Of a stretch of 24,578 nt of DNA, positions 4,822-21,069 are shown one piece after another. Numbering within the stretch: the stretch's first letter is position 1; each line of letters opens with the position of its first letter. The notes below the pieces were generated by a model, which was not told the origin of the DNA, made no database searches, and saw only the letters and a list, made by a program, of their open reading frames with translations. The position numbers and the translations under genes are program-made. The stretch covers positions 1 through 24,578 of IMG/VR virus record IMGVR_UViG_3300025646_000352. The stretch is one strand, 5' to 3'. This DNA comes from a virus.

Positions 4822-5068
4822 GGATGAAAATCCGTTGGTTCATTCGATTGAAGCACAATTCCACGGTGCAGCCAATGCTTCCATGTTGCGGCAGTTGCAC
4901 GCTGATGGGCAATACACTGCACTACTGGAATATGCACTGCTGCTAGCGGAGCAAGAAGCAAGCCAGCGGTCGCAAATCCAGTGGTTGATTCGTGAAGCCG
5001 CTAGCGGCGGTGTACCACCTGTGCAGCAGTGGCATTTGGAGGTTGCTAGGGAGTTGGGTGGTGGTTAG
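4820..5068 (+). CDS. Conserved-looking small helical protein, opposite strand to its surroundings
   Basis: Eighty-two residues (MDENPLVHSIEAQFHGAANA...), mostly helical and acidic, with repeated Ala, Leu, Glu and Gln (LLEYALLLAEQEASQRSQIQWL). I do not know a function. Its ATG overlaps the divergent sigma start by two bases (CATG), and its stop overlaps the convergent dCTP deaminase stop by four, so it fills exactly the gap between two - strand genes. Codon use and composition look protein-like, which argues against a chance antisense ORF. No Shine-Dalgarno is seen, and its promoter would have to lie inside the sigma gene. Confidence 0.6.
   Translation: MDENPLVHSIEAQFHGAANASMLRQLHADGQYTALLEYALLLAEQEASQRSQIQWLIREAASGGVPPVQQWHLEVARELGGG
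4847..4875 (-). promoter_or_regulatory. Candidate promoter for the sigma gene
   Basis: Read on the - strand: TTGGCT (4870-4875), 17 bases, then TTCAAT (4847-4852) preceded by TGC, an extended -10 context. The predicted transcript would begin near 4840, about 19 bases before the sigma start. It lies inside the opposing 82-residue gene. It is the weakest match of the promoter family described for this window. Confidence 0.4.
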
Positions 5069-5571
5069 GTGATGGAACCCATCACGCTGTCGTGGCCGTT
5101 GTAGTGGCCTGTTACCGCATAACTTAGCTCCGGCATGGCGCTCATGCGGATGAATACGACCTGGCCAATCTTCAAGCCTGGATATAACGGCAGCGGTAAG
5201 ATCTGCCGTGCATTTTTCAGCTCCAGCGTCAGTACACTACCATGCCACCCTGGATCGGCGTAACCAGCGTGGCTGTGCTCATACCCTTCGCGTGCACGGC
5301 TGGACTTCAAGAAGAACAAGCCGGCGACATCCTCGGGCATGTTGAACCGCTCGATCGTTTCAGCCAAGATGAACTGCCCAGGCCGCAGCCAGTACGGATC
5401 ATCAGCAGTGCGATCTGCGATGCTAAGCGGCCGCATGTTCAAGTCCTCGGCAGATTCGATCATGATTGTGCCGCCAAGACGTAGGTCAAGGCTGGCGGGG
5501 TTGATCAATGCTGGATCGTAGCCTTCGACCATTCCGGCGTTGCGGATTTCGCGATCGCAAAGAATCGACAT
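5065..5571 (-). CDS. dcd: dCTP deaminase
   Basis: 168 residues. Dcd-family signatures are present: INPASLDLRLG (23-33), KSSRAREG (89-96), HAGYADPGWHG (101-111), LTLELKN with the likely catalytic E117, and PGLKIGQVVF (131-140). The enzyme deaminates dCTP to dUTP, feeding dTTP synthesis during phage replication; some family members also hydrolyse dUTP, and I cannot tell which type this is. The length is a little short of the usual ~190 residues. Its start lies inside the end of the upstream zinc-ribbon gene. It is the last gene of the big leftward operon before the sigma gene. Confidence 0.9.
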   Translation of the reverse strand: MSILCDREIRNAGMVEGYDPALINPASLDLRLGGTIMIESAEDLNMRPLSIADRTADDPYWLRPGQFILAETIERFNMPEDVAGLFFLKSSRAREGYEHSHAGYADPGWHGSVLTLELKNARQILPLPLYPGLKIGQVVFIRMSAMPELSYAVTGHYNGHDSVMGSIT

Positions 5572-5791
5572 TGAGTTTTAAATGCAAGGTGAATGGTCCG
5601 CCGCTGAGATCACTAGCATCATCTGGTTCAGCCAGGAACTCAGCGAATTGAATGGTCTTGTACCGATAACCGCAGAATTCACATTCTCGATAACGTAGGT
5701 AGTCGCCACCTTCAGAGCGGTATGTGCGCAGCACGCTGGTGATCAGTGCTTTGCATTGCGGGCATGGGCATGAGGCGCGATTGAGTGGCAT
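5486..5791 (-). CDS. NrdR/Ogr-like zinc-ribbon protein
   Basis: 101 residues from the ATG at 5791; an upstream GTG at 5866 in the same frame is less likely. A four-Cys ribbon (CPCPQC ... CEFCGYRYKT) fills residues about 8-45, with aromatic and basic residues typical of the NrdR N-terminal or Ogr-type nucleic-acid binding ribbon. The NrdR ATP-cone domain is absent, so this is not a full NrdR. The C-terminal 35 residues are basic and low in complexity and overlap the dCTP deaminase start by 86 bases. A DNA- or RNA-binding regulator is likely, target unknown. Confidence 0.65.
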   Translation of the reverse strand: MPLNRASCPCPQCKALITSVLRTYRSEGGDYLRYRECEFCGYRYKTIQFAEFLAEPDDASDLSGGPFTLHLKLNVDSLRSRNPQRRNGRRLRSSIDQPRQP

Positions 5792-5905
5792 CAGAAGGCT
5801 AAAATGAATCTGACCCTTTCTGGGCCATCGCGTAACCGCTGCGCCCGCCAGCGGTGAGATTGCCACCTCGGGAGGAGCAGTCAGCGGGCGCCCAAGTTGA
5901 TCGAG

Positions 5906-6133
5906 TTACTGCCGCTCAGCAACCATCAACAACCGCCGCATATGCCAATCAGCCTTAGCTAGATCTTCTGCGCGGTTGCCTTTGTGCTCAGCACGCCATA
6001 GATATTTGATGACGTTGCCTTTGCAGTAGGCAATGAAACCATCATCACCAAGTGCAGCATGGATTGCATTGATGCACTCAATACCGCCTTGTTTGTAATG
6101 TGGCGGGTGATTCACCATGTCAGATTCAGTCAT
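5906..6133 (-). CDS. DUF3310 family protein
   Basis: Seventy-five residues matching the DUF3310 pattern: VNHPPHYKQGGIECINAI, then GFIAYCKGNVIKYLWR and a closing LAKADWHMRRLL. This small phage family has no firmly established role, though it is often annotated as nucleotide-kinase-like and found in replication modules. The start at 6133 overlaps the upstream stop as ATGA. A second ATG five codons in, at MVNHPP, is possible. About 115 bases without a clear gene separate it from the zinc-ribbon gene downstream. Confidence 0.85.
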   Translation of the reverse strand: MTESDMVNHPPHYKQGGIECINAIHAALGDDGFIAYCKGNVIKYLWRAEHKGNRAEDLAKADWHMRRLLMVAERQ

Positions 6134-6420
6134 TCAACCCAGCTCCATTGGTGGCGGTTGCAGATGCGCCAGATTTGTTTGATGCTCATGCCGTAATGCT
6201 TGGCGAGTTGTGGATACGTATTACCAGCTGCACGCATAGCACGCATTCGGCGCACATCATCCGGCGTCAGCACTGATGCAGGATTTGCCATGCCGCGTTT
6301 GAATTGGCCAGCGGTTGGTGTTGCCAGCGACCGACGCGCAAAGCACAGCAGGTGGTGATCAGCTGGAACATGCTTCGCCAGCTCCGCTGCAAGCTCCATC
6401 GCTAGCGCATGATGATTCAT
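6130..6420 (-). CDS. Small helix-turn-helix protein
   Basis: Ninety-six residues from the ATG at 6420; an in-frame start at 6480 would overlap the upstream gene even more. The C-terminal half (LTPDDVRRMRAMRAAGNTY, then a YGMSIKQIWRICNRHQW helix) reads as a helix-turn-helix of the resolvase/HNH-linker kind, where a recognition helix follows a short turn (HYGMS). It probably binds DNA. No nuclease motif is present. The stop overlaps the DUF3310 start by four bases, so the two are probably coupled. Confidence 0.65.
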   Translation of the reverse strand: MNHHALAMELAAELAKHVPADHHLLCFARRSLATPTAGQFKRGMANPASVLTPDDVRRMRAMRAAGNTYPQLAKHYGMSIKQIWRICNRHQWSWVE

Positions 6421-6541
6421 AGAGCCCGGTATAAGTCGCGTGCAGTGGATGGTTGGGATCATTGCGGCCGTCTTGTTCATACAGCCGGTCCAGCTCGTCT
6501 TGGCGAGCTTGCTGTTCAGTCGGGCTGCAGTCCTTGTTCAT
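6359..6541 (-). CDS. Hypothetical small acidic protein
   Basis: Sixty residues. The first 43 (RQDELDRLYEQDGRNDPNHP, then LHATYTGLYE) look like a conserved small phage protein with an amphipathic helix, while the last 17 are Ala/Ser/Cys-rich and may be unstructured. It starts inside the end of the upstream 52-residue gene (26-base overlap) and overlaps the HTH gene start by 62 bases. No function is recognised. Confidence 0.5.
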   Translation of the reverse strand: MNKDCSPTEQQARQDELDRLYEQDGRNDPNHPLHATYTGLYESSCASDGACSGAGEACSS

Positions 6542-6674
6542 CGGTCAATTCCAGTAGTTGAAGGATGTGCGCGGCAAATGCCGCATGGGTCATCACTGCA
6601 TGGGTGCCGGGAGGACGCCCGTAGGACGCCTCCCACCACTCCTTGAATGCAGCTTCAAGGGCGGTTTGGTTCAT
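6516..6674 (-). CDS. Hypothetical 52-residue protein downstream of ssb
   Basis: Found by translating the gap: MNQTALEAAFKEWWEASYGR followed by PPGTHAVMTHAAFAAHILQLL. The ATG shares one base with the ssb stop (TGATG), a coupling arrangement. The protein looks like one compact helical domain with aromatic residues (KEWWEASYG), a pattern seen in small phage proteins next to recombination genes. I do not recognise a function. It ends inside the start of the 60-residue gene. Confidence 0.65.
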   Translation of the reverse strand: MNQTALEAAFKEWWEASYGRPPGTHAVMTHAAFAAHILQLLELTDEQGLQPD

Positions 6675-7054
6675 CAGAAGGGGATGTCTTCGGTGTCGCT
6701 GGTGGCAGCAGCTGCGGCATTGCTGCCACCAGCGGGCGGGCGCGGCATGAATTCAAACCGGCTGATGCTCAGTACATGCTTACTGCGCTTTTGGCCAGTG
6801 GTCTTATCTTCCCAGTCCTGCCGGCGGATGTTACCGCTGGCGAGGATTGAATCCATCTTCTTCAACTTGTCGTAGATCAGTTCTGCCGACTTGCCCCAGA
6901 CTTCTACATCAATGGTGTTATTGATGTAGTTGCCGTTTTTGTCCTTACCTTCCTGGATGCCACCAGCGAAGTTGCATACCATGCTGCCGGATTCAAAGGC
7001 ACGCAGTTGCGGGTCGGTGATGATACGAATCACACCAGTTGCGTAAAGGCTCAT
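6674..7054 (-). CDS. ssb: Single-stranded DNA-binding protein
   Basis: 126 residues. An OB-fold covers about residues 1-103 (GVIRIITDPQLRAFESG ... NNTIDVEVWGKSAELI ... SGNIRRQDWEDKTTGQKRS ... LSISRFEFM). A short Ala/Gly linker leads to an acidic tip DTEDIPF like the DDDIPF tip of bacterial SSB, which recruits partner proteins. It coats single-stranded DNA during replication and during annealing by the nearby Bet protein. It is shorter than E. coli SSB because the linker is short. It lies four bases after the HTH gene stop and is coupled to the next small gene. Confidence 0.93.
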   Translation of the reverse strand: MSLYATGVIRIITDPQLRAFESGSMVCNFAGGIQEGKDKNGNYINNTIDVEVWGKSAELIYDKLKKMDSILASGNIRRQDWEDKTTGQKRSKHVLSISRFEFMPRPPAGGSNAAAAATSDTEDIPF

Positions 7055-7058
7055 CAGT

Positions 7059-7271
7059 TCAAGGATTCAGTGGAATGATGCCATGCGTCTGCTCAAAAGC
7101 AAGCACAGCGGATAGTGCATACCGCACACGCTTTTCACCGGCTGGTGTTGCAATGCGCGGCAGCTCATAATGCGGAGGACCGTTCCCCCGCGAACGCTGG
7201 GATTTGATCGTGGATGGCTTGAGGCCCCAGCGCGCTGCGAGCTGTTCGGTGGTGAGATACGGTTCAGTCAT
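7059..7271 (-). CDS. Helix-turn-helix protein of the AlpA/MerR-like kind
   Basis: Seventy residues from the ATG at 7271. TEPYLTTEQLAARWGLKPST begins a winged-helix or excisionase-like fold: YLTTEQLAARWGL is the usual first helix pair, SQRSRGNGPPHYELP the wing, and the end supports a strand and helix (RVRYALSAVLAFEQ). These proteins bind DNA as transcription regulators or recombination directionality factors. With no integrase in the window neither role can be preferred. The start overlaps the bet stop by eight bases (ATGACTGA). Confidence 0.75.
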   Translation of the reverse strand: MTEPYLTTEQLAARWGLKPSTIKSQRSRGNGPPHYELPRIATPAGEKRVRYALSAVLAFEQTHGIIPLNP

Positions 7272-8049
7272 CAGCAAATGGATCCTCCTCCGGTACCTCA
7301 GGGTGCAGCGCTGCTTCGCGTTGCATTGCAAGCGTGCTCAGCTCGTCATATTGCTCGGGGCTGAGCTGCGACTGACGTGCTTTCATCCGTTCGTTCACTT
7401 CCGCCAGCTTCTCCAGCGTGTCCGCCTTGGCGATAGCAGCTTTGCCGGCTTGGAACAGCTTTGCATCGCCAGCCGGTTGGGCGGGCAGTGCAGCGGGTGC
7501 AGGTGGCTGAGCGGTGACAGTGACGGGTTCTACCGTCTCGGATTGATCCATCTCGTCGGTGGTGTAAACACCGCTGAGATCAGCCGGGAATGCCTTGCGC
7601 AGCGCCAATGCCTCGGAGCATTTGGCGATCATCGCGGCACCCATCTTGCTCCACAAGCCTTGACCGGCGTTGTAGTCAGCAAACCGCGCGACGCCAACGA
7701 ACGGGCGTGATGCACCACGGCGGTAGATGATGGTTTTGGCAGCTGCAGGTGGCTTGGAATCAAGCCATACATCACGCCATTCGCCATCAGCGCCGCACCA
7801 GAATGTTTCAGAGCCGTCAAGTTGGCCGGTGCGTTCGGCAATGCTGCGCAAGCCGTCAATGCCGGCTTGAATGGTCATCTTGCCACCGCGCTTGATGGCA
7901 TAGATCTGCTTAGAGAACGGATCCAGCCCAGTGCGTTGACACGCATAAGCAAACAGCCGCAGTTCATCCTGACTGCAGCCCGGTGCAATGGTGCTGCTGA
8001 TCAGTTGCGTTTGTTCTGGGGTCCAGTGAGTGAGGGTGGAGGAGGTCAT
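7264..8049 (-). CDS. bet: Bet/RecT-type single-strand annealing recombinase
   Basis: 261 residues. The Red-beta-like core is at about residues 10-160: FAYACQRTGLDPFSKQIYAI (33-52), MTIQAGIDGLRSIAERTG (58-75) and LWSKMGAAMIAKCSEALALR (132-151). Such proteins anneal complementary single strands in phage recombination and form rings on ssDNA. A Pro/Ala-rich linker (about 175-192) leads to a helical tail ending in an acidic EEDPFADD, possibly an interaction tip. Three genes upstream is a RecE-like exonuclease and just downstream is SSB, so the trio forms a Red-like module. Start and stop both overlap their neighbours. Confidence 0.92.
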   Translation of the reverse strand: MTSSTLTHWTPEQTQLISSTIAPGCSQDELRLFAYACQRTGLDPFSKQIYAIKRGGKMTIQAGIDGLRSIAERTGQLDGSETFWCGADGEWRDVWLDSKPPAAAKTIIYRRGASRPFVGVARFADYNAGQGLWSKMGAAMIAKCSEALALRKAFPADLSGVYTTDEMDQSETVEPVTVTAQPPAPAALPAQPAGDAKLFQAGKAAIAKADTLEKLAEVNERMKARQSQLSPEQYDELSTLAMQREAALHPEVPEEDPFADD

Positions 8050-8309
8050 TCGGCGAGGTGATAAGTGTGCCCGTCAACAACGACGGTCTTGGGCGGTTGG
8101 GGTTTGGTTGGGCGGCAGTGCTCCTTTAGGTCAGCGGCGGCGGTTTCGTAGCCGTTGCATTGCAGCCACTTGAGGCAGATGACTAATTGTTCGTTGGCAC
8201 CCCAGCGGGCAAAGAATTTAACGTCTTCGCAGTAGGTGGTATCCGTTTCGCCGAAGCGATCATCAATCAACCATTGCGGCGGTGTAATCGGGTGGTCGTC
8301 AGAAATCAT
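8046..8309 (-). CDS. Hypothetical protein between exonuclease and annealase genes
   Basis: Eighty-seven residues: ITPPQWLIDDRFG at the start, a helical middle (EQLVICLKWLQCNGYETAAAD) and a short KTVVVDGHTYHL strand at the end. No motif is recognised. It is locked between the exonuclease (11-base overlap) and bet (ATGA), so it is likely made with the recombination pair. It may be an accessory or inhibitor of host nucleases, though nothing in the sequence proves that. Confidence 0.65.
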   Translation of the reverse strand: MISDDHPITPPQWLIDDRFGETDTTYCEDVKFFARWGANEQLVICLKWLQCNGYETAAADLKEHCRPTKPQPPKTVVVDGHTYHLAE

Positions 8310-10044: not shown

Positions 10045-10340
10045 TGGATGGCCTCGTAGCAGTGTTTGATCGTGTACTGCGCAGCAGCGCGGGTGTCTTC
10101 ATCGTTACGCACGCGGTCGGGGCGGTAGGCAGCTTCGACAGCCGCGGCGCGTGCGGTGCTGAGCGTCACGCCTTGCGCGCGCAGCTCACAGAACAGCTCG
10201 CCGTAGGCGATGGGATCAATGCTCTGCGCTTGCGCTGGGGTGATGAGTGCAAGCGCGATCAATGCAAGTCGGATCACGTGTTTGACGGGGTGAGGTTGAC
10301 TGCCGGATTGGTTGCGGCTCCGGCGGGCCGCGCCTGTCAC
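10041..10340 (-). CDS. Small exported protein with signal peptide
   Basis: Ninety-nine residues from the GTG at 10340, which overlaps the upstream stop (GTGA). A second GTG at 10286 would give a more typical signal peptide: HVIRLALIALALITPAQAQS, with likely cleavage after AQA. The mature part is about 60 residues with two Cys (ELFCELRAQG and IKHCYEAIQ), which may form a disulfide. It resembles small exported proteins of cyanobacterial phages (a YGELFCELR.G start). The role is unknown; export during infection could alter the host envelope. Confidence 0.65.
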   Translation of the reverse strand: MTGAARRSRNQSGSQPHPVKHVIRLALIALALITPAQAQSIDPIAYGELFCELRAQGVTLSTARAAAVEAAYRPDRVRNDEDTRAAAQYTIKHCYEAIQ

Positions 10341-10711
10341 CAGGCCAGTGCAGCAGCGATCAGCCTGTGCTTCGCCACCTTGCGGCGGATACCGGTGGCA
10401 GCCTGCAGTTCACGCAGCGTCAGCTGTTCCATCTCGGCGGCGATAGCAGCCAGTGGATGCAGTGCAGCGGGCACCGCAGCAGCAGCGACGCCGAGCAGTG
10501 CGGCGTAGCACTTGCCGAGCTGTTCGCTCAGCGCCGGCAGTGCATCCCACAGGCGGCGGGTGTATTGGCCAGCGAGCAGCGTCAGCACAATCAGCACCTG
10601 CAAGCCGTGCAGCACGATCGCGCCGACTTCTTGCCAGTCCACGCGGAAACGGGCGTAGCCATAGATGGTGCCAGCAGCGTGGCCGAGCAGTTGAGGGATG
10701 GTGGTTTTCAT
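10337..10711 (-). CDS. Membrane-associated hypothetical protein, first gene of the leftward operon
   Basis: 124 residues from the ATG at 10711 (MKTTIPQLLGHAAG...). Two hydrophobic stretches (about VGAIVLHGLQVLIVLTLLAG and YAALLGVAAAAVPAAL) suggest membrane association. The C-terminal 30 residues form a HTH-like basic unit (LTLRELQAATGIRRKVAKHR), so it could bind nucleic acid from the membrane. I do not recognise the family. A strong candidate promoter sits 47-75 bases upstream. The frame is open back to 10879 but those codons overlap the neighbouring gene and look non-coding. Confidence 0.65.
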   Translation of the reverse strand: MKTTIPQLLGHAAGTIYGYARFRVDWQEVGAIVLHGLQVLIVLTLLAGQYTRRLWDALPALSEQLGKCYAALLGVAAAAVPAALHPLAAIAAEMEQLTLRELQAATGIRRKVAKHRLIAAALAW

Positions 10712-10731: not shown

Positions 10732-10749
10732 GCGGGACGGTGCGCCCGC
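10732..10749 (-). other. Leader hairpin upstream of the operon start
   Basis: On the - strand GCGGG and CCCGC enclose an 8-base loop (5-bp stem, 10732-10749). It lies just after the predicted transcript start from the promoter at 10758-10786, inside an approximately 40-base leader. Confidence 0.4.
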
Positions 10750-10757
10750 GTGATGGA

Positions 10758-10786
10758 ATCGTACCACCTAGGGCAGCTGTGTGCAA
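10758..10786 (-). promoter_or_regulatory. Candidate sigma-70 promoter for the 10711-5065 operon
   Basis: TTGCAC (10781-10786), exactly 17 bases, TACGAT (10758-10763), with TGG immediately before the -10 (extended -10). The -35 lies in the last codons of the upstream DUF551-like gene. It is one of the best members of the window's promoter family and shares a CTAGGTGG end of the spacer with the one at 15228-15256. Confidence 0.65.
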
Positions 10787-11307
10787 CCTTGCTGGGTTGG
10801 AACCGGCAATGCCCAGTGAGGGAGCCAATAAACGTTTGGCCAGTCCGGTTCGTGGCTTGGCAGCGGCTCCAGATCCCATTCAGGGTTTGTGGTGTCGTGT
10901 TCACCATTCACCAAGTAGGTGAACGCCGGATAGCCAAGCCAGCACCTTCCCTCCGCATCGCAATCCTTCAGCTTCGGCATCCGCTCGCTTACCGGCACCG
11001 GCTTGATAGAGGGGCGGGCGCAAAGGGCGCGATCAGCAGCAATAGCAGCGCGAGCGAAATCAAGATGCTCTAGGTACATGGTCCCGTTTGAACCATCCAT
11101 AACCATGTAGTCATCTGCTAGCTCTTCCAACTTCCTATCTGTCAGCCCCTCCGGTTCGGGCTGCTCCAATGCGGAACTCAACGCAGCGGACAACTTAGAA
11201 CTCTTCCACCCCTCGCCGGGCGGTCCTTCATCGCAGTGGCATTCGACGGCTTCAAGAATCACGTCCCACTGGTCGGCGGAAAGGGTGATCGTGCGTTGTG
11301 CAGTCAT
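10768..11307 (-). CDS. DUF551-like protein
   Basis: 179 residues. The second half (about 100-173) has the DUF551 pattern: PVPVSERMPKLKDCDAEGRC with CWLGYPAF, an aspartate-rich middle and YWLPHWALPVP near the end. This domain is common in phage accessory regions and has no known activity. The first 95 residues are a separate helical unit (ITLSADQWDVILEAVECHC, then LTDRKLEELADDYM). The start overlaps the RlpA-like gene stop (ATGA). Its 3' end carries the -35 of the next operon's promoter. Confidence 0.75.
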   Translation of the reverse strand: MTAQRTITLSADQWDVILEAVECHCDEGPPGEGWKSSKLSAALSSALEQPEPEGLTDRKLEELADDYMVMDGSNGTMYLEHLDFARAAIAADRALCARPSIKPVPVSERMPKLKDCDAEGRCWLGYPAFTYLVNGEHDTTNPEWDLEPLPSHEPDWPNVYWLPHWALPVPTQQGCTQLP

Positions 11308-12550: not shown

Positions 12551-12655
12551 TGGGCTTGAGCGGTAGGGATTAGGTGCCGAGATCGCTGCTCTCGGCCGGC
12601 AGGCTGCTCTCTTGTCCGCAGCGGAGAATCCGGGGCGCTCTATCCGGCTTGTGGC
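12551..12655 (-). other. Structured 5' leader, about 105 bases
   Basis: No ORF is seen between the predicted transcript start and the ATG at 12550. On the - strand GCCGAGA and TCTCGGC (12576-12596) form a perfect 7-bp hairpin with a 7-base loop, followed at once by ACCTA. A smaller TCCG/CGGA hairpin lies upstream. A GGCACCTA step after a hairpin also appears, as GCACCTAGACA, in the two neighbouring leaders. Confidence 0.45.
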
Positions 12656-12663
12656 CTAATGCC

Positions 12664-12692
12664 ATCATACCATCCCGTGCAACCCCGTGCAA
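12664..12692 (-). promoter_or_regulatory. Strong candidate sigma-70 promoter
   Basis: TTGCAC (12687-12692), 17 bases, TATGAT (12664-12669), with TGG directly before the -10. A second TTGCAC lies inside the spacer, giving the tandem TTGCACGGGGTTGCACGGG. This is the best match of the family and sits in an otherwise empty gap between a terminator and the 12550 gene. Confidence 0.7.
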
Positions 12693-12721
12693 CCTGTTGA
12701 GCGGCCTCCGATACGGTTTCA

Positions 12722-12812: not shown

Positions 12813-12998
12813 TTACTGGATCCGGTCCTCAAGATCCATGCAGGCGCTCACCAGCGTATCGACCAGCGGATTGGAGCAGATCTCCTCCCACTCATCGTCG
12901 GTGGTGCACACCCGCATGTCCTCCAGCGCTTTTTTGACCGCTTCAGCAGAAGCGATCAGATCAGCGATGGCCTCAAGGCCGGCGCTCAGTTTCTTCAT
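12813..12998 (-). CDS. Hypothetical acidic protein, apparently monocistronic
   Basis: Sixty-one residues: MKKLSAGLEAIADLIASAEA and then VKKALEDMRVCTTDDEWEEI and a helical end (LVDTLVSACMDLEDRIQ). It is strongly acidic, small and helical, as are many phage proteins that bind and redirect host enzymes; no target can be named. It has its own promoter (13043-13071), a leader with a 7-bp hairpin, and an intrinsic terminator, so it is the only gene in its transcription unit. That suggests a need for separate, possibly high, expression. Confidence 0.7.
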   Translation of the reverse strand: MKKLSAGLEAIADLIASAEAVKKALEDMRVCTTDDEWEEICSNPLVDTLVSACMDLEDRIQ

Positions 12999-13018: not shown

Positions 13019-13036
13019 GTCGGGATCGCTCCCGAC
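13019..13036 (-). other. Leader hairpin with GNRA loop
   Basis: On the - strand GTCGGGA, loop GCGA, TCCCGAC: a perfect 7-bp stem with a GNRA-type tetraloop, starting a few bases after the predicted transcript start. It is followed by GCACCTAGACAA and the ATG at 12998; the same GCACCTAGACA precedes an ATG at 13385. Confidence 0.55.
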
Positions 13037-13042: not shown

Positions 13043-13071
13043 ACTATACCACACTGCACAACCATGCGCGA
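13043..13071 (-). promoter_or_regulatory. Candidate promoter for the 12998 gene
   Basis: TCGCGC (13066-13071), 17 bases, TATAGT (13043-13048), with TGG before the -10. The -10 is near consensus; the -35 differs from the family TTGCGC at one base. It lies in a 99-base gap between two small genes. Confidence 0.6.
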
Positions 13072-13097
13072 CTCAATGGCCCCGAGGGGCCGCCGCG

Positions 13098-13418: not shown

Positions 13419-13446
13419 ATGGTACACCATGCGCCGCCGTGGCCAA
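13419..13446 (-). promoter_or_regulatory. Candidate promoter for the 13289 gene
   Basis: TTGGCC (13441-13446), 16 bases, TACCAT (13419-13424). The -10 hexamer and spacer length equal those of the promoter at 21042-21069. It lies directly after the stop of the 65-residue gene at 13450. Confidence 0.4.
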
Positions 13447-13449
13447 CCA

Positions 13450-13647
13450 TCAGTCATATTCGGTTACATCGCGCGTCAAGTCACGACTAGACCACTCGGC
13501 CTCAGGGATCCACCAATCCTGAATTGAGGAGTAGCTGCGCGTGATCCACGTCGCGCGGCGGCACTGCACGCCATTGATGATCGCCTCACGCGGTTGGCTG
13601 CTGCGTGCGTCAGTGATGCGGATTGCGTTAGGGGTTGGTTTTGTCAT
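13450..13647 (-). CDS. Hypothetical protein
   Basis: Sixty-five residues from the ATG at 13647, which overlaps the VRR-NUC stop (ATGA). It reads as a small beta-rich domain: NAIRITDARSSQPREAIING, VQCRRATWITRSYSSIQDWW, then IPEAEWSSRDLTRDVTEYD. The pattern of a basic R-R turn followed by aromatic residues recalls small DUF6504-like proteins, a weak resemblance only. Function unknown. Confidence 0.65.
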   Translation of the reverse strand: MTKPTPNAIRITDARSSQPREAIINGVQCRRATWITRSYSSIQDWWIPEAEWSSRDLTRDVTEYD

Positions 13648-13991
13648 GCCAGTAATGATTGCGCATCCTCCACGCTGCGCGCCACGCCAGCAATTCCGCC
13701 AGCGGCTTGCACTGCTTCCATCCATTGCCGCTGTTCCGGGCGCAGGCGGCCGGTTTGGCTCTTGACCTCAATGCTGGCGAACACCGCCACCTGCTGGCCG
13801 ACCATCTCGGGCGTAATGGTGATCGTGCGCCAGCCGATCAGGTCGCCAGCACCCTTGCCGCCGACGCCAAACTCAACCCATCGGCCAGTGCGTGGATCCG
13901 GCAGCCGGCCGACATTATTGCGATGCAGCCTGGCTGAGCCGCGACTGCAAGCGAGCCTGATCTGTTGCTGGATGGTTTGCTCTGACGGCAT
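13644..13991 (-). CDS. VRR-NUC domain nuclease
   Basis: 115 residues from the ATG at 13991 (a GTG lies one codon earlier). It has the VRR-NUC layout: N-terminal acidic residue E4 (PSEQTIQQQI), GGKGAGDLIGW with D50, and E75-V-K77 (FASIEVKSQTGRL) followed by QRQWMEAVQAAGG. This PD-(D/E)XK group includes phage Holliday-junction or flap-cutting enzymes and FAN1-like repair nucleases. It probably resolves branched DNA during replication or packaging. Second of three PD-(D/E)XK-type proteins in the window. Confidence 0.88.
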   Translation of the reverse strand: MPSEQTIQQQIRLACSRGSARLHRNNVGRLPDPRTGRWVEFGVGGKGAGDLIGWRTITITPEMVGQQVAVFASIEVKSQTGRLRPEQRQWMEAVQAAGGIAGVARSVEDAQSLLA

Positions 13992-15005: not shown

Positions 15006-15200
15006 TCAGATTACTTGGACAAATTCGCCATCTTCAAACATGCGAACTACCCAGCCGCGACCGTTGTGGAAAAGATCAAAGGTTTCGCCGGGGCAAGCGG
15101 TTTCAATGGCAACGGCCAATGTCTCCTCGGCGCGAGCTTTGCCGGCGTCGTTGTCGCGGTAGGTGGTTGATGCGTACTGAATAGTGCTGAGATCGAGCAT
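15006..15200 (-). CDS. Hypothetical protein, first gene of its unit
   Basis: Sixty-four residues from the ATG at 15200 (MLDLSTIQYASTTYRDNDAG...). The end (GETFDLFHNGRGWVVRMFED and GEFVQVI) reads as a small beta hairpin domain; the middle is an acidic helix (KARAEETLAVAIETACP). No motif recognised. The predicted transcript from the promoter at 15228-15256 starts about 20 bases before the ATG, which supports this start over the in-frame one at 15227. Confidence 0.65.
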   Translation of the reverse strand: MLDLSTIQYASTTYRDNDAGKARAEETLAVAIETACPGETFDLFHNGRGWVVRMFEDGEFVQVI

Positions 15201-15227
15201 AGTCCGATGGTGAGGTCCGATGCGCAA

Positions 15228-15256
15228 ACAATACCACCTAGCTCAGCCGTGCGCAA
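15228..15256 (-). promoter_or_regulatory. Candidate promoter for the 15200-13450 unit
   Basis: TTGCGC (15251-15256), 17 bases, TATTGT (15228-15233) with TGG before the -10. The spacer ends CTAGGTGG, as at 10758-10786. The -35 lies in the last codons of the helicase gene. The leader contains a direct repeat CATCGGAC. Confidence 0.6.
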
Positions 15257-16613
15257 CCTTGCGGGCACGGGCGGCGTGCACATGCTTCGCCCATGCAGCT
15301 GGGTTCTTGTAGCCGCGCGTGCGGCCAAGCTGGATCAGCTGCTCCAACGACTGCGCTGAGCCTTGCTCACGCTTGCGCTCCCGAGCTGCAGCAGCAAGCT
15401 CCACCAGCTCGCCTTCCACGGTCTGCAGTTCCCTGCGCTCCACCGGTGCAAACACATGCCCGCATTCAGCGCACACGCGGGCGGTGCTGAGGCTGGTACT
15501 GAAGCATTTAGGGCAGACCTTGCAGCTCGGGGCAGATTCGCGCTGTTGCTTGCGGCGGCCGTCAAGGCTCCACTCATGCACCTGCAGCGGATGGCCAAGC
15601 CTGCCGCAGTTGCCGACGTGATCAAGGATGATCAGATCACGCTTGCCCGTTGCGATCCGCAAACCGCGACCATTGCCTTGCAACCATGCCGTTAGTGATT
15701 GCGTTGGTCTGAGCCAGATCACCACATCAATCTCAGGCACATCAACGCCAGCAATCCACAGCTGCGCGCACGCCACTAGGTCAAGCCGTCCAGCGCGTAA
15801 TCCAGCAACAGCTTCGCGGCGTTCGCGGTCATCGCTGCCGCCATGTACCGCAACAGCGCGATAGCCAGCGCGGCGCCATTGATCAGCAACAGCCTGTGCA
15901 TGGGCCACAGTGGTGCAAAACGCAACACCACGGCGGCCACGGCACAACTTACGCCAGTGGCTCAGTGCATCACCAACAACAGCCGGCTTGCTCATCATTT
16001 CACCGGCTTGCCCTTGATCAAAGTCACCGCCACGGCTGCGCAGTCCGGTTAGGTCAACGCCAGGTGGTGCATAGACACGCACTGGCGCTAGCAGTCCTTC
16101 CTCGATCAGTTCAGCCGTCGAGCATGTCGGCACCAAGCGGTCAAACACCTCACCGAGTCCACGCCCATCGAGCCGCTGAGCTGTCCCGGTGAGTCCGAGC
16201 AGCAGCGGCCGGCCAGCGGCGGCGATCACTTTTTTGTAGCTATCAGCTACAGCTAGATGGCATTCGTCGATGATGATCAAATCCGGTCGTGGCAACCGTG
16301 GCCGCCGCACTGCTGTTGCAACACCAACCACCTGCACTGGCCTTGAATAGTCCACGCGCATACCAGCGCGGATGTGGCCATGCAGGATCCCAGCATGGCG
16401 CAGGCGTGCGCTGGTATCTTCCAGGATTTCCTTCAGGTGCGCCAGAAACCACACGCTACGGCCGCGTGCAGTGCTGCTGCGGACGATTTCGGCGGCCGTC
16501 GCGGTTTTGCCGAAACCCGTTGGTGCCACAAGGATCGGGGCGCGCGCGCCGCTTTGATATGCAGCGCGCAGGTCTTCAACCGCCTTGAGTTGGCGGGGGC
16601 GGAGTTGGATCAC
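15243..16613 (-). CDS. SF2 DEAD/DEAH-like helicase
   Basis: 456 residues. Superfamily-2 motifs in order: Walker A APTGFGKT (30-37), DECH (116-119), LTGTAQR (141-147, in place of the usual LTATP), and motif VI QGNGRGLR (312-319). A four-Cys zinc ribbon (C367xxC370 and C381xxC384, with C364 nearby) follows in the linker, then a helical Arg/Gln-rich tail. It should unwind or remodel nucleic acids with ATP in replication or repair. Its start overlaps the fusion protein's stop (ATGA), so the two are made together. Confidence 0.9.
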   Translation of the reverse strand: MIQLRPRQLKAVEDLRAAYQSGARAPILVAPTGFGKTATAAEIVRSSTARGRSVWFLAHLKEILEDTSARLRHAGILHGHIRAGMRVDYSRPVQVVGVATAVRRPRLPRPDLIIIDECHLAVADSYKKVIAAAGRPLLLGLTGTAQRLDGRGLGEVFDRLVPTCSTAELIEEGLLAPVRVYAPPGVDLTGLRSRGGDFDQGQAGEMMSKPAVVGDALSHWRKLCRGRRGVAFCTTVAHAQAVADQWRRAGYRAVAVHGGSDDRERREAVAGLRAGRLDLVACAQLWIAGVDVPEIDVVIWLRPTQSLTAWLQGNGRGLRIATGKRDLIILDHVGNCGRLGHPLQVHEWSLDGRRKQQRESAPSCKVCPKCFSTSLSTARVCAECGHVFAPVERRELQTVEGELVELAAAARERKREQGSAQSLEQLIQLGRTRGYKNPAAWAKHVHAARARKVAHG

Positions 16614-18871
16614 ACCAGCTCTCCCTGCTTGGCGGATTCACACTGCTGCAGGTTCTTGGCGGCGCAGTTGAAGTAGGAAGGCTTCAGCTCAAACCCAACA
16701 AACCGCCTACCCATTTGCAGGCTGACGTATCCCTCGCTGCCGATACCAGCGAATGGGCTCAGCACAAGATCGCCCGGATTGCTCCACAGCTGCAAACCAC
16801 GACGGATCACCTCAAGCTGCAGCGGGCAGATATGGCGCTCATCGTCATTGGCGCGGGCGCTGCGGTATTGCAGCGTGTCTGATGGGTTGATGTCCATCCA
16901 CACGGGGCTGGCATACCGCTGCCAGATGTTGATTGAATCCTTGATCGGATCGCCGGTCTTGGGCGGCGGATTCTCACCGGCGAATTCCGTGAACGGTCCG
17001 GCGCACGGCTCAGGGTTGTCGCCCAGCTTCCGCACGGTCACTAGATAATCTGGGATGCCTTGGCGGCTGAGTGCTGAATCCTTGCGGATCTGCTTATGCA
17101 GCAGGCCGATCGCTTTGGTGCGCTGCATCGCAGTGACCGGATCCTTCCAGATGCACACCTCGCTATGGAATACGAAGCCGGCAGATTGGAAGATCCGCAG
17201 CATGTCACCGCGAAAGTCTTTTACTCCAATGAAGCCATCGCGTTCCTTACTGCTCGGCAGGTTCATGCAGTGGAAGCTGATCAGCCTGCCTGGCATCATC
17301 ACGCGGTGCAGCTCAGTAGCTAGGAAGCCGAAATGATCAAAGAACTCCTGCTCCGTTCGGCTGTTGCCCATATCACGGTCGCTGTTGCTGTAGGTGTAGA
17401 GCGACGCAAATGGTGGGCTGAAGACGCTGTAGTGGATTGAATCAGAATCCAACTGGCGGATGCTCTCCACGCAGTCGCCTAGGTACAGATCCCAGTTATC
17501 GCCGCTCTTGCGCTCGGTGATGTGCGGCGCCACCTGGCGCTGGATCTTCTTGAGTTGCTCCATTGTGGTCTTCTTCATGATTTCAACCATTGATTGAGCC
17601 ATTGCGATGCTGTCCGATTCCTTGCGGCGGATGTTATCAATCACGCGGCCTTCGGCCACGTCGTAGATGATGTGCGCATTCACCGGATGCTGTTGGCCGA
17701 ATCGCCAACACCTGCGGATGGCTTGATAGAACGCTTCATAGCTATGGGACAAGCCAACAAATGCGACATTGTGGCACCGCTGGAAGTTCAAGCCAAAGCC
17801 AAAGATGCTCGGCTTGCTTACCAGTACGCGAATCTTGCCGTCTTGGAAATCAATCGCAGCCTGCCGCTTGTGATCATCGCCGTCGCTGCCGGACACCTCA
17901 ACAGCGCCATTGATGGCAGCAGTGAGCGCCTTGCTTTCATCGTTCAGATCACACCACACCAGCCATTGCTCATCGCTGGCATTAGCAAGTGCAGCAGCAG
18001 CGTCAACGCGCAGCTGCAAACTAGCCTTGCGCACCTGCCGTTGATCGCTCAGCGTGCGCGCTTCCATCGCAAACAGCGCCATCTGGCCGTCGTCGCCGGC
18101 CGCAGCCTCGCGCGGTGTTTCAACCGTGCAATCATGGATGCGCAGTTCCGGTAGCACGAATTCTCCATCCTCATAACCAAGGTCCGATGGTTTGCGGATG
18201 GTCACTGCCCAGCTGCAAACCCACTCCCAGAACTTGGTCTTTGCGTGGCCCTTCAGTCGCCACTTGCTGGTATCACCGCCGTCATGCACGAAGAACATCG
18301 CCAGCATTTCGGTGCGTGTCATCACACCAATGAACTCAGCATGGTTGCCAAGTTCCATATGGTCGTTCGGTGCTGGCGTGGCTGAGCACGCAAGGCGATA
18401 CGGCGTCTGCGCAAATGACTCAATGATCTGATTGCGGATTTTGCCGGTATATGCCTTCAAGATGCTGGACTCATCCAGCACTACGCCTTGGAAACTGGCC
18501 GCATCAAAGTGGCTCAGCTTCTCGTAATTGGTGACCGTGATGCCGGGCTTGACATCAGCTTGCGTTGCAGCGAAGTTGCAGCTGATGCCGAACTTTTGCC
18601 CTTCGCGTACGGTTTGATGTGCAACCGCAAGTGGTGCTAGCACCAGCACATTGCCGCCGGTATATTCATGCACTTGATGCGCCCATTCAAGCTGCATGGC
18701 AGTCTTGCCCATGCCGCAGTCGGCCCAGATGCAGAACTTACCGACGCGGCACGCCATTGTCACGATGTCCTGCTGGAACGGGAACAATGGCGCGGTGAAT
18801 GATTGCGGATCAAATCCAGTTGCCGGCGCAGCGGTGGATTTAGCGGCGAGGAACTCTTGATATTCCTGCAT
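16610..18871 (-). CDS. SNF2-type helicase fused to a DNA methyltransferase
   Basis: 753 residues from the ATG at 18871, chosen because a GGAGG lies four bases before it. The first 450 residues are an SF2/SNF2-like ATPase: DCGMGKT (51-57), DESS (133-136), ACSATPAP (161-168) and motif VI QAIRRCWRFGQ (383-393). The last 290 are a class-beta amino-methyltransferase: motif IV SPPF (485-488) comes before motif I LSPFAGIGSEG (704-714). SPPF/SPPY usually marks N4-cytosine methylation, though some adenine enzymes share it. Fused helicase-methylases are known in phages; here they may protect the genome from host restriction. No target-recognition domain is obvious. The -10 to +5 region has the best Shine-Dalgarno on this strand. 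Confidence 0.92.
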   Translation of the reverse strand: MQEYQEFLAAKSTAAPATGFDPQSFTAPLFPFQQDIVTMACRVGKFCIWADCGMGKTAMQLEWAHQVHEYTGGNVLVLAPLAVAHQTVREGQKFGISCNFAATQADVKPGITVTNYEKLSHFDAASFQGVVLDESSILKAYTGKIRNQIIESFAQTPYRLACSATPAPNDHMELGNHAEFIGVMTRTEMLAMFFVHDGGDTSKWRLKGHAKTKFWEWVCSWAVTIRKPSDLGYEDGEFVLPELRIHDCTVETPREAAAGDDGQMALFAMEARTLSDQRQVRKASLQLRVDAAAALANASDEQWLVWCDLNDESKALTAAINGAVEVSGSDGDDHKRQAAIDFQDGKIRVLVSKPSIFGFGLNFQRCHNVAFVGLSHSYEAFYQAIRRCWRFGQQHPVNAHIIYDVAEGRVIDNIRRKESDSIAMAQSMVEIMKKTTMEQLKKIQRQVAPHITERKSGDNWDLYLGDCVESIRQLDSDSIHYSVFSPPFASLYTYSNSDRDMGNSRTEQEFFDHFGFLATELHRVMMPGRLISFHCMNLPSSKERDGFIGVKDFRGDMLRIFQSAGFVFHSEVCIWKDPVTAMQRTKAIGLLHKQIRKDSALSRQGIPDYLVTVRKLGDNPEPCAGPFTEFAGENPPPKTGDPIKDSINIWQRYASPVWMDINPSDTLQYRSARANDDERHICPLQLEVIRRGLQLWSNPGDLVLSPFAGIGSEGYVSLQMGRRFVGFELKPSYFNCAAKNLQQCESAKQGELV

Positions 18872-19029
18872 CAAACCTCCACGCAATCATCAGAATCACC
18901 TTCAGTCCAAATCACACGCGGTTCACCGTCGGGCGAATCCGGCGCCTGGCGTACCACAGCAACCGGCGCAGGTTTGCTGCAGTATTCAGGGATCGGCTGC
19001 TGGGTGGTGAGGATTAAAGCGGTGAGCAT
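18871..19029 (-). CDS. Hypothetical 52-residue acidic protein
   Basis: Found in the gap: MLTALILTTQQPIPEYCSKP, then APVAVVRQAPDSPDGEPRVI and WTEGDSDDCVEV. Pro/Asp-rich, probably unstructured apart from two short strands; two Cys. Start and stop each share one base with the neighbours (TAATG and TGATG), which supports it. It carries the Shine-Dalgarno of the helicase-methylase gene in its last codons. Function unknown. Confidence 0.6.
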   Translation of the reverse strand: MLTALILTTQQPIPEYCSKPAPVAVVRQAPDSPDGEPRVIWTEGDSDDCVEV

Positions 19030-19349
19030 TAGAGACCTTCCTCAATGATGTTGGCGAGTTCTTCAAATGTGGAGCCGTTGTCGTTAAGGGCGGCGAGGTC
19101 TAGGGGGTTGGGGCTCATTAAATCAGCCCATTTCTGCACTTGAATTGGCAGAGTTGTGTCCACGCGGTGCATAGCGCACACGTTGCCCGAGTCGTATTCA
19201 TCCCACTCCGGCCCAACCGCCTTGCCGTACAGGTCGCACAGCACACCAAGGCAGCAATACTGATCACCTTGGCGGAGATAACCCTGCCCTTGCTGGTAGT
19301 TGCCGCTGCGTAGGGCAGTGAGCCAGGCTTGCTTGATGTCCGGCTTCAC
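19029..19349 (-). CDS. Conserved phage hypothetical, IKQAWLTALRSG family
   Basis: 106 residues from the GTG at 19349, which overlaps the upstream stop (GTGA). KPDIKQAWLTALRSGNYQQG, YCCLGVLCDLYGKAV, and a C-terminal LAALNDNGSTFEELANII match a small protein common in many phages and bacteria, always annotated as hypothetical. A CCLGVLC motif with three Cys is a constant feature. The role is unknown. The frame is open upstream to 19412, but those codons overlie the upstream gene. Confidence 0.85.
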   Translation of the reverse strand: MKPDIKQAWLTALRSGNYQQGQGYLRQGDQYCCLGVLCDLYGKAVGPEWDEYDSGNVCAMHRVDTTLPIQVQKWADLMSPNPLDLAALNDNGSTFEELANIIEEGL

Positions 19350-19684
19350 TGCCCCACCTCCCGCGCAGGCAGCGGGTCCAGTTGCACCCAGCCTTGGCCC
19401 CAGTCTTCCCATGCGGTGCCGTCATCAGCCAGCGCTAGGTACCGGTCGTTGGCGTAGGTGATGCTGGTGAACAGGCGGGGTGTGGTAATAGTCGGAGCAG
19501 TGGCGGTTCCCCACAGGCTGGTGTGGCGCCACGGGGTGTTAGCTGGCGCTTGCTCCCACTCAGTGAATGCGCTCCAGGTCTCGCCGTGCTTCAGCCGAGA
19601 TGGCGCTAGCACAAGCACTTCGCCGTGCTCGTCCGCATCCGACTCCGTCGGCGGTCGATCCGTGATCCAGTCAGTGTCGGTCAT
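19346..19684 (-). CDS. Hypothetical DUF551-like N-terminal protein
   Basis: 112 residues from the ATG at 19684. WITDRPPTESDADEHGEVLV, then LAPSR matches the start of DUF551-like phage proteins (W.TDR.PTE.DAD..G.VLV). The second half (ITYANDRYLALADDGTAWED, then WGQGWVQLDPLP) looks like a small beta-strand unit. No known activity. It is the first gene of the unit that carries both helicases, behind an inverted repeat at 19714-19748. Confidence 0.75.
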   Translation of the reverse strand: MTDTDWITDRPPTESDADEHGEVLVLAPSRLKHGETWSAFTEWEQAPANTPWRHTSLWGTATAPTITTPRLFTSITYANDRYLALADDGTAWEDWGQGWVQLDPLPAREVGQ

Positions 19685-19713
19685 GTCCAGTGGTGAGGGA
19701 CTTGGGTAGGTTA

Positions 19714-19748
19714 GCACAGGGTGGCGGGGGTGGGGAACTACCCTGTGC
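19714..19748. repeat. Inverted repeat, probable operator or hairpin
   Basis: GCACAGGGT (19714-19722) and ACCCTGTGC (19740-19748), nine perfect base pairs around a 17-base pyrimidine/purine-biased spacer (- strand AGTTCCCCACCCCCGCC). On the - strand the right arm ends one base before TAACCT, with TGC in front (an extended -10 form), about 23 bases from the 19684 start. The placement suits an operator around a promoter, or a terminator for the 19759 gene without a U-run. Confidence 0.5.
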
Positions 19749-19758
19749 CAAGGTTGTT

Positions 19759-19941
19759 TTAAGCGGCGTGAACTTCTAGGTCAAAAGATCCAAGCAAGTC
19801 TGCAATCTTGAATTTCAAGTCAGACTCTGTGGTTTCATCTAGCGCTAAACCGCGCTGTTTTAGCTGATCTTTGATGGCATCAAGTGCAAAATGCGCAGTG
19901 TCGTGCGTGTCAACGCATTCGCAAAGAAGAGATGTTTGCAT
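19759..19941 (-). CDS. Hypothetical small protein
   Basis: Sixty residues from the ATG at 19941 (MQTSLLCECVDTHDTAHFAL, then DAIKDQLKQRGLALDETTES and DLKFKIADLLGSF). One helical acidic domain; two Cys near the N-terminus. No function recognised. A Shine-Dalgarno is not visible, and the 19-base gap upstream holds a T-rich stretch. Confidence 0.6.
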   Translation of the reverse strand: MQTSLLCECVDTHDTAHFALDAIKDQLKQRGLALDETTESDLKFKIADLLGSFDLEVHAA

Positions 19942-19960
19942 GGCAAAAAACAAGAAACGG

Positions 19961-20509
19961 TTAGATAGGTGCAGCGCCAAACTCAAAGCGCTGGCTCAGT
20001 GCTGCATTCGCGGCGTGAAACGCTTTGATCCAGTTCCATCTCGGCTCTAGATCAAAGCTGATGCAGTGACCTGCTTCGTCATCAATTTTGGAAGGGCGAT
20101 CCCAAAATTGCATTCGAACGATCATTGGATCGCAGTCGCCAGTCGGTGTTGCACCTGGATATATATCCTCATACACCTGCTTCATTCCGATGTACCAATT
20201 TCTGATGGCATCAAATGTAGAAGGCGTGAAGAATGCAACGGCGCAACGAGTCGCGTCGGCTAGCTCCCTTGCAAGCGTGATCTCTCGATCTGTTGGATCA
20301 AATGGCTTGCACTCAATCCAATAAAATTCCGCCGGGCGATCGTGATAATAAACCTTGAAATCAGGCAGATAGCGACCAGATGGCAACTCAAATCCTTGCG
20401 GTTCGTATTCCCACCTTGCACCCATCTCGTTTAAGAAGCACGCAACTCGCGCTTCATGCCGGCTGCGGAAAAGCCTGCCGAAGGCAGATGTTTCAATTGG
20501 TTTTACCAT
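19961..20509 (-). CDS. PD-(D/E)XK nuclease-like protein
   Basis: 182 residues from the ATG at 20509 (a GTG lies one codon earlier). The N-terminal half has the nuclease layout: E19 (RSRHEARVACFL), P49-D50-F51 (GRYLPDFKVYY) and E66-C-K68 (YWIECKPF), with a basic first helix. This is the restriction-like fold of TnsA/VSR/homing-nuclease relatives. Residues 75-180 are a helical and beta unit of unknown type. It may cut specific or branched DNA; no partner methylase of the same target can be shown. Its start overlaps the upstream stop. Confidence 0.75.
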   Translation of the reverse strand: MVKPIETSAFGRLFRSRHEARVACFLNEMGARWEYEPQGFELPSGRYLPDFKVYYHDRPAEFYWIECKPFDPTDREITLARELADATRCAVAFFTPSTFDAIRNWYIGMKQVYEDIYPGATPTGDCDPMIVRMQFWDRPSKIDDEAGHCISFDLEPRWNWIKAFHAANAALSQRFEFGAAPI

Positions 20510-21000
20510 CACAGAATTGCGTGCTGGATGGCCGAATCAACAATATGGGCAACGGCATCTGAAATCCTTGTGCGCCCTTGGAATCCATGCCTATCAGCAA
20601 TCTCAAGTATGAATTGTTCGCGCATCTTGCTGTAACGGCAAGTCAACCGCCTTGTCTCTCGCTGACGATCAGATTCGGATTCATCGCCGCCAACGCTGCT
20701 AATCTCTCCAAGGCTTGCGATAGCCGACTTTGCTGATTCGGTCTGCAAACTAATGTGCAGAGCGTTTGCGGTCCATTTAGTGGGGCCAGGATTAGAGCAC
20801 GGGCGAATTGACGCAACAGTGATGCAAGTACCATGAGGCAGCATCTTGACGGGCACCGTGCCAGTGGTGTCTGGATAGCAAAAGCATTCCTCGCCCGTGG
20901 CGAGGATCAGCTTCACCCATTGATAGCGATCTGGGCCGACATCAATGATTTGCCCGGTCAAGTACCGAGACGGTTCGGAAGGCTGAACGAGAAGAGTCAT
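20509..21000 (-). CDS. Hypothetical protein, possible OB-fold plus C-terminal helices
   Basis: 163 residues. The first 85 read as a beta-barrel (LTGQIIDVGPDRYQWVKLIL, then ATGEECFCYPDTTGTVPVKM), which could be an OB-fold. A Ser/Asp-rich linker and a basic helical end (RQRETRRLTCRYSKMREQFI, then SDAVAHIVDSAIQHAIL) follow. I do not recognise the family. First gene of the leftward block, with a promoter at 21042-21069, next to the divergent primase unit. Confidence 0.65.
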   Translation of the reverse strand: MTLLVQPSEPSRYLTGQIIDVGPDRYQWVKLILATGEECFCYPDTTGTVPVKMLPHGTCITVASIRPCSNPGPTKWTANALHISLQTESAKSAIASLGEISSVGGDESESDRQRETRRLTCRYSKMREQFILEIADRHGFQGRTRISDAVAHIVDSAIQHAIL

Positions 21001-21021
21001 CAGAGTTGAGAGATGGGAGGA

Positions 21022-21035
21022 CGCAGTGATCTGCG
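21022..21035 (-). other. Leader hairpin of the 21000 gene
   Basis: CGCAG and CTGCG (5-bp stem, 4-base loop) on the - strand, a few bases after the predicted transcript start of the promoter at 21042-21069. Confidence 0.4.
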
Positions 21036-21041
21036 CTTGAG

Positions 21042-21069
21042 ATGGTAGCAGTTCCGCCTACTGGCGCAA
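21042..21069 (-). promoter_or_regulatory. Candidate leftward promoter in the divergent control region
   Basis: TTGCGC (21064-21069), 16 bases, TACCAT (21042-21047) with TGC before the -10. About 40 bases of leader follow to the ATG at 21000. The -35 forms half of the palindrome at 21064-21075. Confidence 0.55.

What the first reader, a model, noticed from the sequence alone, without database searches (positions are those of the whole stretch)
4847..21069. Seven related leftward promoters, one in nearly every gap of the - strand
At 4847-4875, 10758-10786, 12664-12692, 13043-13071, 13419-13446, 15228-15256 and 21042-21069 the same layout recurs: TTGCGC, TTGCAC or TTGGCY (TCGCGC at one), 16 or 17 bases, TAnnnT or TTCAAT, mostly with TGG or TGC before the -10. 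Two share the spacer end CTAGGTGG. They sit almost exactly where the chain of overlapping genes breaks, so they divide this strand into transcription units.
Basis: seen in the sequence. Interest (0 to 1): 0.7.

Follow-up and report, generated by a model that had tools for sequence, protein, structure and literature searches.

The report
Repeated promoter family in freshwater cyanophages
A virus of freshwater picocyanobacteria and dozens of its relatives carry the same phage-specific promoter in front of many unrelated small genes, with a built-in row of three evenly spaced repeats that probably bind an unknown phage regulator; it is a real, new regulatory module of a known general kind.

Summary
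All seven sequences are present as described. Five form one family: 15228-15257, 13419-13447, 13043-13072, 12664-12693 and 10758-10787. A matrix trained only on other phages, with sites resembling the window's removed, ranks exactly these five first (19.2-32.5; next best 10.8; null 95% maximum 16.8). The family occurs in dozens of IMG/VR cyanophage contigs. None of 33 sites lies deep inside a well-supported gene; at least a dozen unrelated small ORFs follow them.

Of the other two, 4847-4875 lies inside a conserved gene on the opposite strand. Site 21042-21069 is probably a promoter of another class, in a palindromic divergent control region.

The motif is more than -35/-10: three 10-bp-phased units NNTGNNCANG at about -45, -35 and -25, then TAnnnT and usually a hairpin leader ending ~41 nt later at ATG. 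Weak -35s carry an extended -10 and strong ones do not, as in sigma-70 promoters. The motif is absent from hosts and persists although the phage sigma's -35-reading helix varies.

Best reading: host-sigma promoters of accessory early genes with a phage-specific operator. Timing and binding protein are inferred.

The parts
15228..15257 (-). Family promoter, 30-bp type: GTTGCGCACGGCTGAGCTAGGTGGTATTGT; overlaps the stop codon of helicase 15243-16613; drives the small ORF 15006-15200
   Evidence: Relative-trained matrix 32.5, rank 1 in the window; near-identical site in L112
13419..13447 (-). Family promoter, 29-bp type: GTTGGCCACGGCGGCGCATGGTGTACCAT; abuts the stop of ORF 13450-13725; leader with GGGC-CAGGA-GCCC hairpin, then CACCTAGACAATG
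   Evidence: Matrix 30.6, rank 2; counterpart in L081
10758..10787 (-). Family promoter, 30-bp type: GTTGCACACAGCTGCCCTAGGTGGTACGAT; overlaps the stop of ORF 10768-11307; drives ORF 10337-10711 (124 aa)
   Evidence: Matrix 28.8, rank 3; identical or near-identical in G033, L217 and L219
12664..12693 (-). Family promoter, 30-bp type: GTTGCACGGGGTTGCACGGGATGGTATGAT; two array units perfect; in a gap
   Evidence: Matrix 22.6, rank 4
13043..13072 (-). Family promoter, weakest member: GTCGCGCATGGTTGTGCAGTGTGGTATAGT; drives ORF 12813-12998 (61 aa)
   Evidence: Matrix 19.2, rank 5; leader hairpin and gene shared with relatives
13019..13036 (-). Leader hairpin GTCGGGA-GCGA-TCCCGAC behind promoter 13072
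   Evidence: 7-bp Watson-Crick stem
10732..10749 (-). Leader hairpin GCGGG-CGCACCGT-CCCGC behind promoter 10787, followed by CCGAGAACCATG
   Evidence: 5-bp Watson-Crick stem
12551..12663 (-). Long leader (113 nt) behind promoter 12693; its first part resembles by eye the S-CBS1 leader (GCCACAAGCC.GATA...GGATTCTCCGCT)
   Evidence: Sequence compared by eye with S-CBS1; no match to RNA model R1
21042..21097 (.).
4820..5068 (+).
   Evidence: tblastn conservation in relatives
3919..4821 (-). Phage sigma-70-family factor, last gene of the leftward block
   Evidence: Pfam Sigma70 r1.2, r2, r3; alignment
7059..7331 (-). Small HTH_17-like protein, a candidate (unproven) reader of the array
   Evidence: Weak Pfam match below the curated cut-off; present in 12 of 12 motif-bearing genomes compared

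Best explanation
The five sites are promoters of one phage-specific family. RNA polymerase with the host's housekeeping (group 1) sigma reads a sigma-70-type core: either TTGACC, 16 bp, TAnnnT, or a weaker TTGCRC, 17 bp, with an extended -10 TGGTATnnT. Laid over this core are three 10-bp-phased copies of NNTGNNCANG starting about -45, -35 and -25, most likely the binding array of a phage-encoded regulator that sits on one face of the helix and turns the set on or off together. Each promoter gives a short transcript leader, usually with a hairpin and a conserved stretch (CCGAGAACC or CACCTAGAAAA) before ATG, and so makes a portable expression cassette for small, unrelated accessory genes; read-through then feeds the recombination genes and finally the phage sigma gene. 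Shown by comparison: the family, its strand and position, the repeat array, the -35/extended -10 compensation, the hairpins, the absence from hosts. Inferred: the host sigma as reader, the existence and identity of the regulator, the timing (early or middle), the read-through.
For: Out-of-sample matrix ranking; 35 of 42 whole contigs with the motif and 0 reversed-control hits; 0 of 33 sites deep in well-supported genes; many unrelated ORFs behind the sites; array autocorrelation 0.60 at +10 and 0.45 at -10 against at most 0.35 at other offsets, the upstream unit lying outside the trained matrix; -35 match 4.7 of 6 with an extended -10 in 1 of 49 sites, against 3.3 of 6 with an extended -10 in 16 of 17; leader stems in 23 of 42 against 3.8 in shuffles; host genomes lack the motif; the phage sigma's 4.2 helix varies while hosts keep VSRERVRQLE.
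Against: No RNA data. The host-sigma reading is inferred from element quality only. No regulator is identified, and the co-occurring HTH protein travels with recT. Some motif columns were fixed by the collecting regex, and the sites share ancestry. Site 13072 scores within the extreme of the null (19.2 against a maximum of 19.7 in 150 resamples).
Confidence: 0.65

Rival explanations
1. The promoters are read by the phage's own sigma factor (3919-4821), which would make them a middle or autoregulated regulon; the conserved spacer would be part of that sigma's recognition.
For: Most long motif-bearing contigs carry the sigma, and helicase relatives without the sigma (G037-G039, G041, G042) lack the motif. 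The sigma gene is last in the block served by the promoters.
Against: The region 4.2 recognition helix differs strongly between phages with the same TTGACC element (SKQTLQGAE, SRARMCEIQ, SRGHMCQLQ, SKSKLQDLE, APSRVQQLE, TRSRVGQRH), whereas hosts are invariant. S-CBS1 and S-LBS1 have the sigma and no site above the matrix threshold. Co-occurrence may be shared descent.
Confidence: 0.17
2. They are simply strong host-sigma promoters whose conserved spacer optimises RNA polymerase binding; the repeats are a by-product and no extra protein reads them.
For: The sigma-70-like core and the -35/extended -10 compensation; T4 early promoters also carry consensus outside the classical elements (PMC2988021).
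Against: A precise 10-bp periodicity over three units, one of them upstream of the -35, is not expected from sigma contacts; host genomes show no such array.
Confidence: 0.12
3. The array is the site of a host response regulator (RpaB/HLR1 or PhoB type, which bind 10-11-bp direct repeats), so the phage taps host signalling.
For: Those regulators bind direct repeats of 10-11 bp near promoters (own general knowledge, not tested here).
Against: No exact match in 84,980 bacterial and archaeal species genomes; in 13 picocyanobacterial genomes 9 loose hits against 6 control hits; in 121 genomes of one family 11 hits, about the number I calculate by chance for 2 mismatches, though the reversed control gave none.
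Confidence: 0.04

Closest known systems
ESAS/SAS elements of cluster K mycobacteriophages (Adephagia, TM4; PMC3203893, PMC11373665)
   Same: Several intergenic copies per genome of a conserved ~46-bp sequence that holds SigA-like -35/-10 hexamers plus extra conserved repeats, in front of small non-structural genes, tied to a conserved sequence near the start codon.
   Different: Inverted 17-bp repeats and a 13-bp SAS there; here three direct 10-bp units, variable-sequence leader hairpins, no sequence relation, another host phylum.
T4 middle promoters (MotA box plus host -10; PMC2988021)
   Same: A phage-specific element combined with a host sigma-70 -10, about half with TGn.
   Different: The MotA box replaces the -35; here a -35-like element is kept and the array spans it. 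No MotA or AsiA homologue was sought or identified.
T4 early promoters (PMC2988021)
   Same: Host-sigma promoters with consensus beyond the classical elements.
   Different: No 10-bp repeat array is described there.
Lambda CII-dependent promoters (TTGC-N6-TTGC; own knowledge)
   Same: 10-bp direct repeats around the -35.
   Different: By my comparison the register relative to the -10 is shifted, there is a third unit, and no CII homologue was identified.
Ma-LMM01 promoters (PMC5780444)
   Same: A freshwater cyanophage reported to use host SigA-like promoters in all phases.
   Different: Its authors found no phage-specific motif; here there is a strong one.

Membership tests
Sigma-70 (group 1 / RpoD) promoters | -35 and -10 hexamers close to TTGACA/TATAAT, 16-18 bp apart, with an extended -10 compensating a weak -35 | tested here: met
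   mean -35 match 4.73 without TGn, 3.29 with TGn; -10 match 4.4 of 6; spacers 16 and 17
Sigma-70 (group 1 / RpoD) promoters | Transcription start 5-9 nt downstream of the -10, by host holoenzyme | not testable with these tools
   Needs RNA or in vitro data
Promoters of the phage-encoded sigma | Specificity residues of sigma co-vary with, or are conserved like, the promoter | tested here: not met
   the 4.2 helix diverges among phages that share the motif
Host RpaB/PhoB regulon | The motif is also present in host genomes | tested here: not met
Cluster K ESAS/SAS | 17-bp imperfect inverted repeat plus the 13-bp SAS GGGATAGGAGCCC | not tested
   No dedicated search was made; the repeats found here are direct
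T4 MotA-dependent middle promoters | A box replacing the -35 about 12 bp from the -10, and a MotA homologue | tested here: inconclusive
   A -35-like element is kept in most sites; no MotA-specific search was run

The most novel reading that the evidence does not exclude
A new phage regulon: a phage-encoded DNA-binding protein, not yet recognised as a regulator, binds three 10-bp-phased NNTGNNCANG units built into host-sigma promoters and switches a mobile set of accessory-gene cassettes, some of them with a new pseudoknotted leader RNA, in a very common group of freshwater cyanophages.
Probability: 0.45. Interest if true: 0.65.

Novelty: new variant of a known kind. Interest (0 to 1): 0.5.

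Why it matters
At least 599 stretches of IMG/VR contigs encode a relative of this phage's sigma factor (not all from this lineage), so the wider group is abundant, yet in the papers searched I found no described promoter motif for these cyanosiphoviruses. A matrix now exists that finds the promoters of their accessory genes, marks moron cassettes, and gives a defined array with which to fish for the regulator. A possible variant of the promoter and a conserved leader RNA occur in the isolate S-CBS3, and the RNA also in S-CBS1, so the question can be tested in culture.

Tried and rejected
Generic sigma-70 and terminator scan: no signal, below shuffles. First regex and five-site PWM scans found few hits, because most relatives use the TTGACC/16-bp variant; the motif was re-derived from relatives. 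Phage sigma as reader: helix divergence argues against. G040 first looked like a counterexample (sigma, no motif), but its contig breaks where the promoter region should be. Host regulon: none found. HTH and recT co-occurrence does not discriminate. Rfam: nothing at gathering scores, one meaningless weak hit. MAFFT alignment of the short leaders fails on the variable hairpins, so stems were compared one by one. The window holds no match to the leader-RNA model. A candidate late (+ strand) promoter shares the leader style but not the array; not pursued.
Full report
What the window is. A 24,578-base IMG/VR virus fragment. The proteins and gene order place it with Synechococcus siphoviruses of the S-CBS1/S-CBS3/S-LBS1 type: structural and lysis genes on the + strand; a - strand block of methylase-helicase, helicase, small ORFs, nuclease, RecT, HTH, SSB and dCTP deaminase ending with a sigma factor; and a divergent primase on the + strand. 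The best GenBank match is S-CBS3, 79% over the methylase only.

Check of the observation. A generic sigma-70 scan sees none and is below its own shuffles, so hexamers alone prove nothing. Five of the seven share much more than hexamers. Using loci fetched with the sigma and helicase proteins, the shared layout was re-derived from relatives: GTTG..C.{3}G..G..C then 4-8 bases and TA...T. A spacing of exactly 3 gives 18 distinct sites against 0-2 for neighbouring spacings. The sites fall into a 29-bp type (consensus GTTGACCACGGCTGCGCATGGTGTAGGAT) and a 30-bp type (GTTGCGCACGGCTGCGCTAGGTGGTATGAT). A matrix from relatives only, with every training site within 5 mismatches of a window site removed, ranks 15257, 13447, 10787, 12693 and 13072 first (32.5-19.2); the next position in the window scores 10.8, and resampled windows have a 95% maximum of 16.8 and a maximum of 19.7. 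Site 13072 alone is within reach of chance by score, but its leader recurs in relatives and its downstream gene in G029.

The two non-members. 4847-4875 is the reverse complement of about codons 10-19 of a conserved 82-aa + strand ORF, 4820-5068. 21042-21069 lies in the divergent control region in front of a 56-aa ORF that looks ribbon-helix-helix-like by eye (Pfam does not support it) and the primase. There, relatives hold a palindromic promoter pair such as CTTGCACAGTGTAGCAGCGGGTGCTACGGTTGCAAG, in which both -10s are the arms of one palindrome; the window and G040 hold two copies. It is probably a promoter, but of another class.

More than chance, and where. The strict motif occurs in 56 stretches of viral contigs and the 30-bp type in 9. 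With up to 3 mismatches it occurs in 35 of 42 whole contigs (most chosen for carrying it) and never in the reversed control. Nearly all sites are on the strand of the sigma and early genes. The exceptions, G005:15388, L248:18022 and L210:2643, lie on the opposite strand with an ATG and leader-like sequence behind them, as expected of moron cassettes. None of 33 sites lies deep in a well-supported gene (genes called by a simple script of mine). The ORFs behind the sites are short and mostly unrelated to each other.

Anatomy. (a) Core: 49 non-redundant 29-bp sites have TTGACC-like -35s (4.7 of 6) with almost no extended -10; 17 30-bp sites have weak -35s (3.3 of 6) with TGn before the -10 in 16. 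This compensation is what sigma-70 recognition predicts. (b) Array: the first ten bases match the next ten at 0.60 and the preceding ten at 0.45; all other offsets are at most 0.35. The unit NNTGNNCANG is matched at 3.2, 4.7 and 4.3 of 5 at offsets -10, 0 and +10, against at most 1.95 elsewhere upstream and 2.4 downstream. The upstream copy was outside the matrix, so it is independent evidence, although the sites share ancestry. (c) Leader: where an ATG was found close by, it mostly follows 39-44 nt after the -10; 23 of 42 leaders have a Watson-Crick stem of at least 5 bp against 3.8 in shuffles, with 11 different stem sequences, so pairing rather than sequence is kept.

Who reads it. The motif is absent from bacterial genomes at exact match and near chance level with mismatches in the likely host family, so it is a phage motif. 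The phage sigma is present in most long motif-bearing contigs, but its region 4.2 helix differs between phages with the same -35, whereas hosts keep VSRERVRQLE. Host sigma with TTGACC is the simpler reading; cyanobacterial group 1 sigmas prefer TTGACA/TATAAT (PMC2758279). The array most simply needs another protein. The HTH_17-like protein 7059-7331 is in all 12 motif-bearing genomes compared, but it travels with recT, so co-occurrence does not single it out.

A leader RNA in relatives. Behind many of the relatives' promoters lies a ~113-nt leader RNA, present also in S-CBS1 and S-CBS3, with a pseudoknot supported by changes on both sides. Rfam has no match at gathering score and the window has none. 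It is listed separately.

Comparison with the known. Closest in logic are the ESAS of cluster K mycobacteriophages: seven intergenic copies in Adephagia of a 46-47-bp sequence with SigA-like hexamers plus conserved repeats (PMC11373665; PMC3203893). T4 middle promoters combine a phage box with a host -10 (PMC2988021). I know of neither with a three-unit 10-bp direct array. In the papers searched I found no report of a promoter family for these cyanosiphoviruses; most subscription papers are not in that library.

Limits. All evidence is comparative. Sites were collected partly with a regex that fixes some columns. Many contigs are fragments, and related sequences are not independent. The number of promoters active in the window, their strength and their timing are unknown.

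Noticed in passing
L230:13785-13896 (+), L227:4394-4506 (-), L161 (S-CBS3) 28794-28908 (-), L162 (S-CBS1) 26092-26182 (-) and others: A ~113-nt conserved leader RNA behind the promoters of relatives, with a pseudoknot: 15 of 15 pairs kept in all 21 sequences, 6 pairs with changes on both sides, covariation score 0.309 against at most 0.088 for slid versions. No Rfam match at gathering score. Possibly a new structured RNA family.
   Followed up: partly
21042-21097 and the loci: Conserved divergent control region in which both -10 elements form the arms of one 17-bp palindrome (CTTGCAC..GTAGCANNNNNTGCTAC..TGCAAG), so leftward and rightward promoters overlap and should exclude each other; two copies in the window and in G040.
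   Followed up: partly
3919-4821 and its relatives: The phage sigma keeps region 2 but its region 4.2 recognition helix diverges quickly between close phages, while the host helix is invariant: possibly a rapidly changing late-promoter specificity.
   Followed up: no
L024:13850 (-), L035:5387 (-), L045:3903 (-), L025:14260 (-): A candidate late promoter before a small gene on the structural strand: TATAGTGGTGGGGCAGC... with a similar leader (hairpin, then CCCTAGAAACCATG) but no TTGACC and no array.
   Followed up: no
G014:37911, G036:30221, G005:25367, G032:12424: Some promoters drive small ORFs that look like a membrane segment followed by a helix-turn-helix (e.g. MLTTALLVIWKLLLPLL...RIADRLNLSTYRVRK).
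   Followed up: no
G016:31919 and G014:12452, downstream of the primase gene: Array of TCGGACGCAA repeats just after the primase gene (possible origin or other binding array).
   Followed up: no
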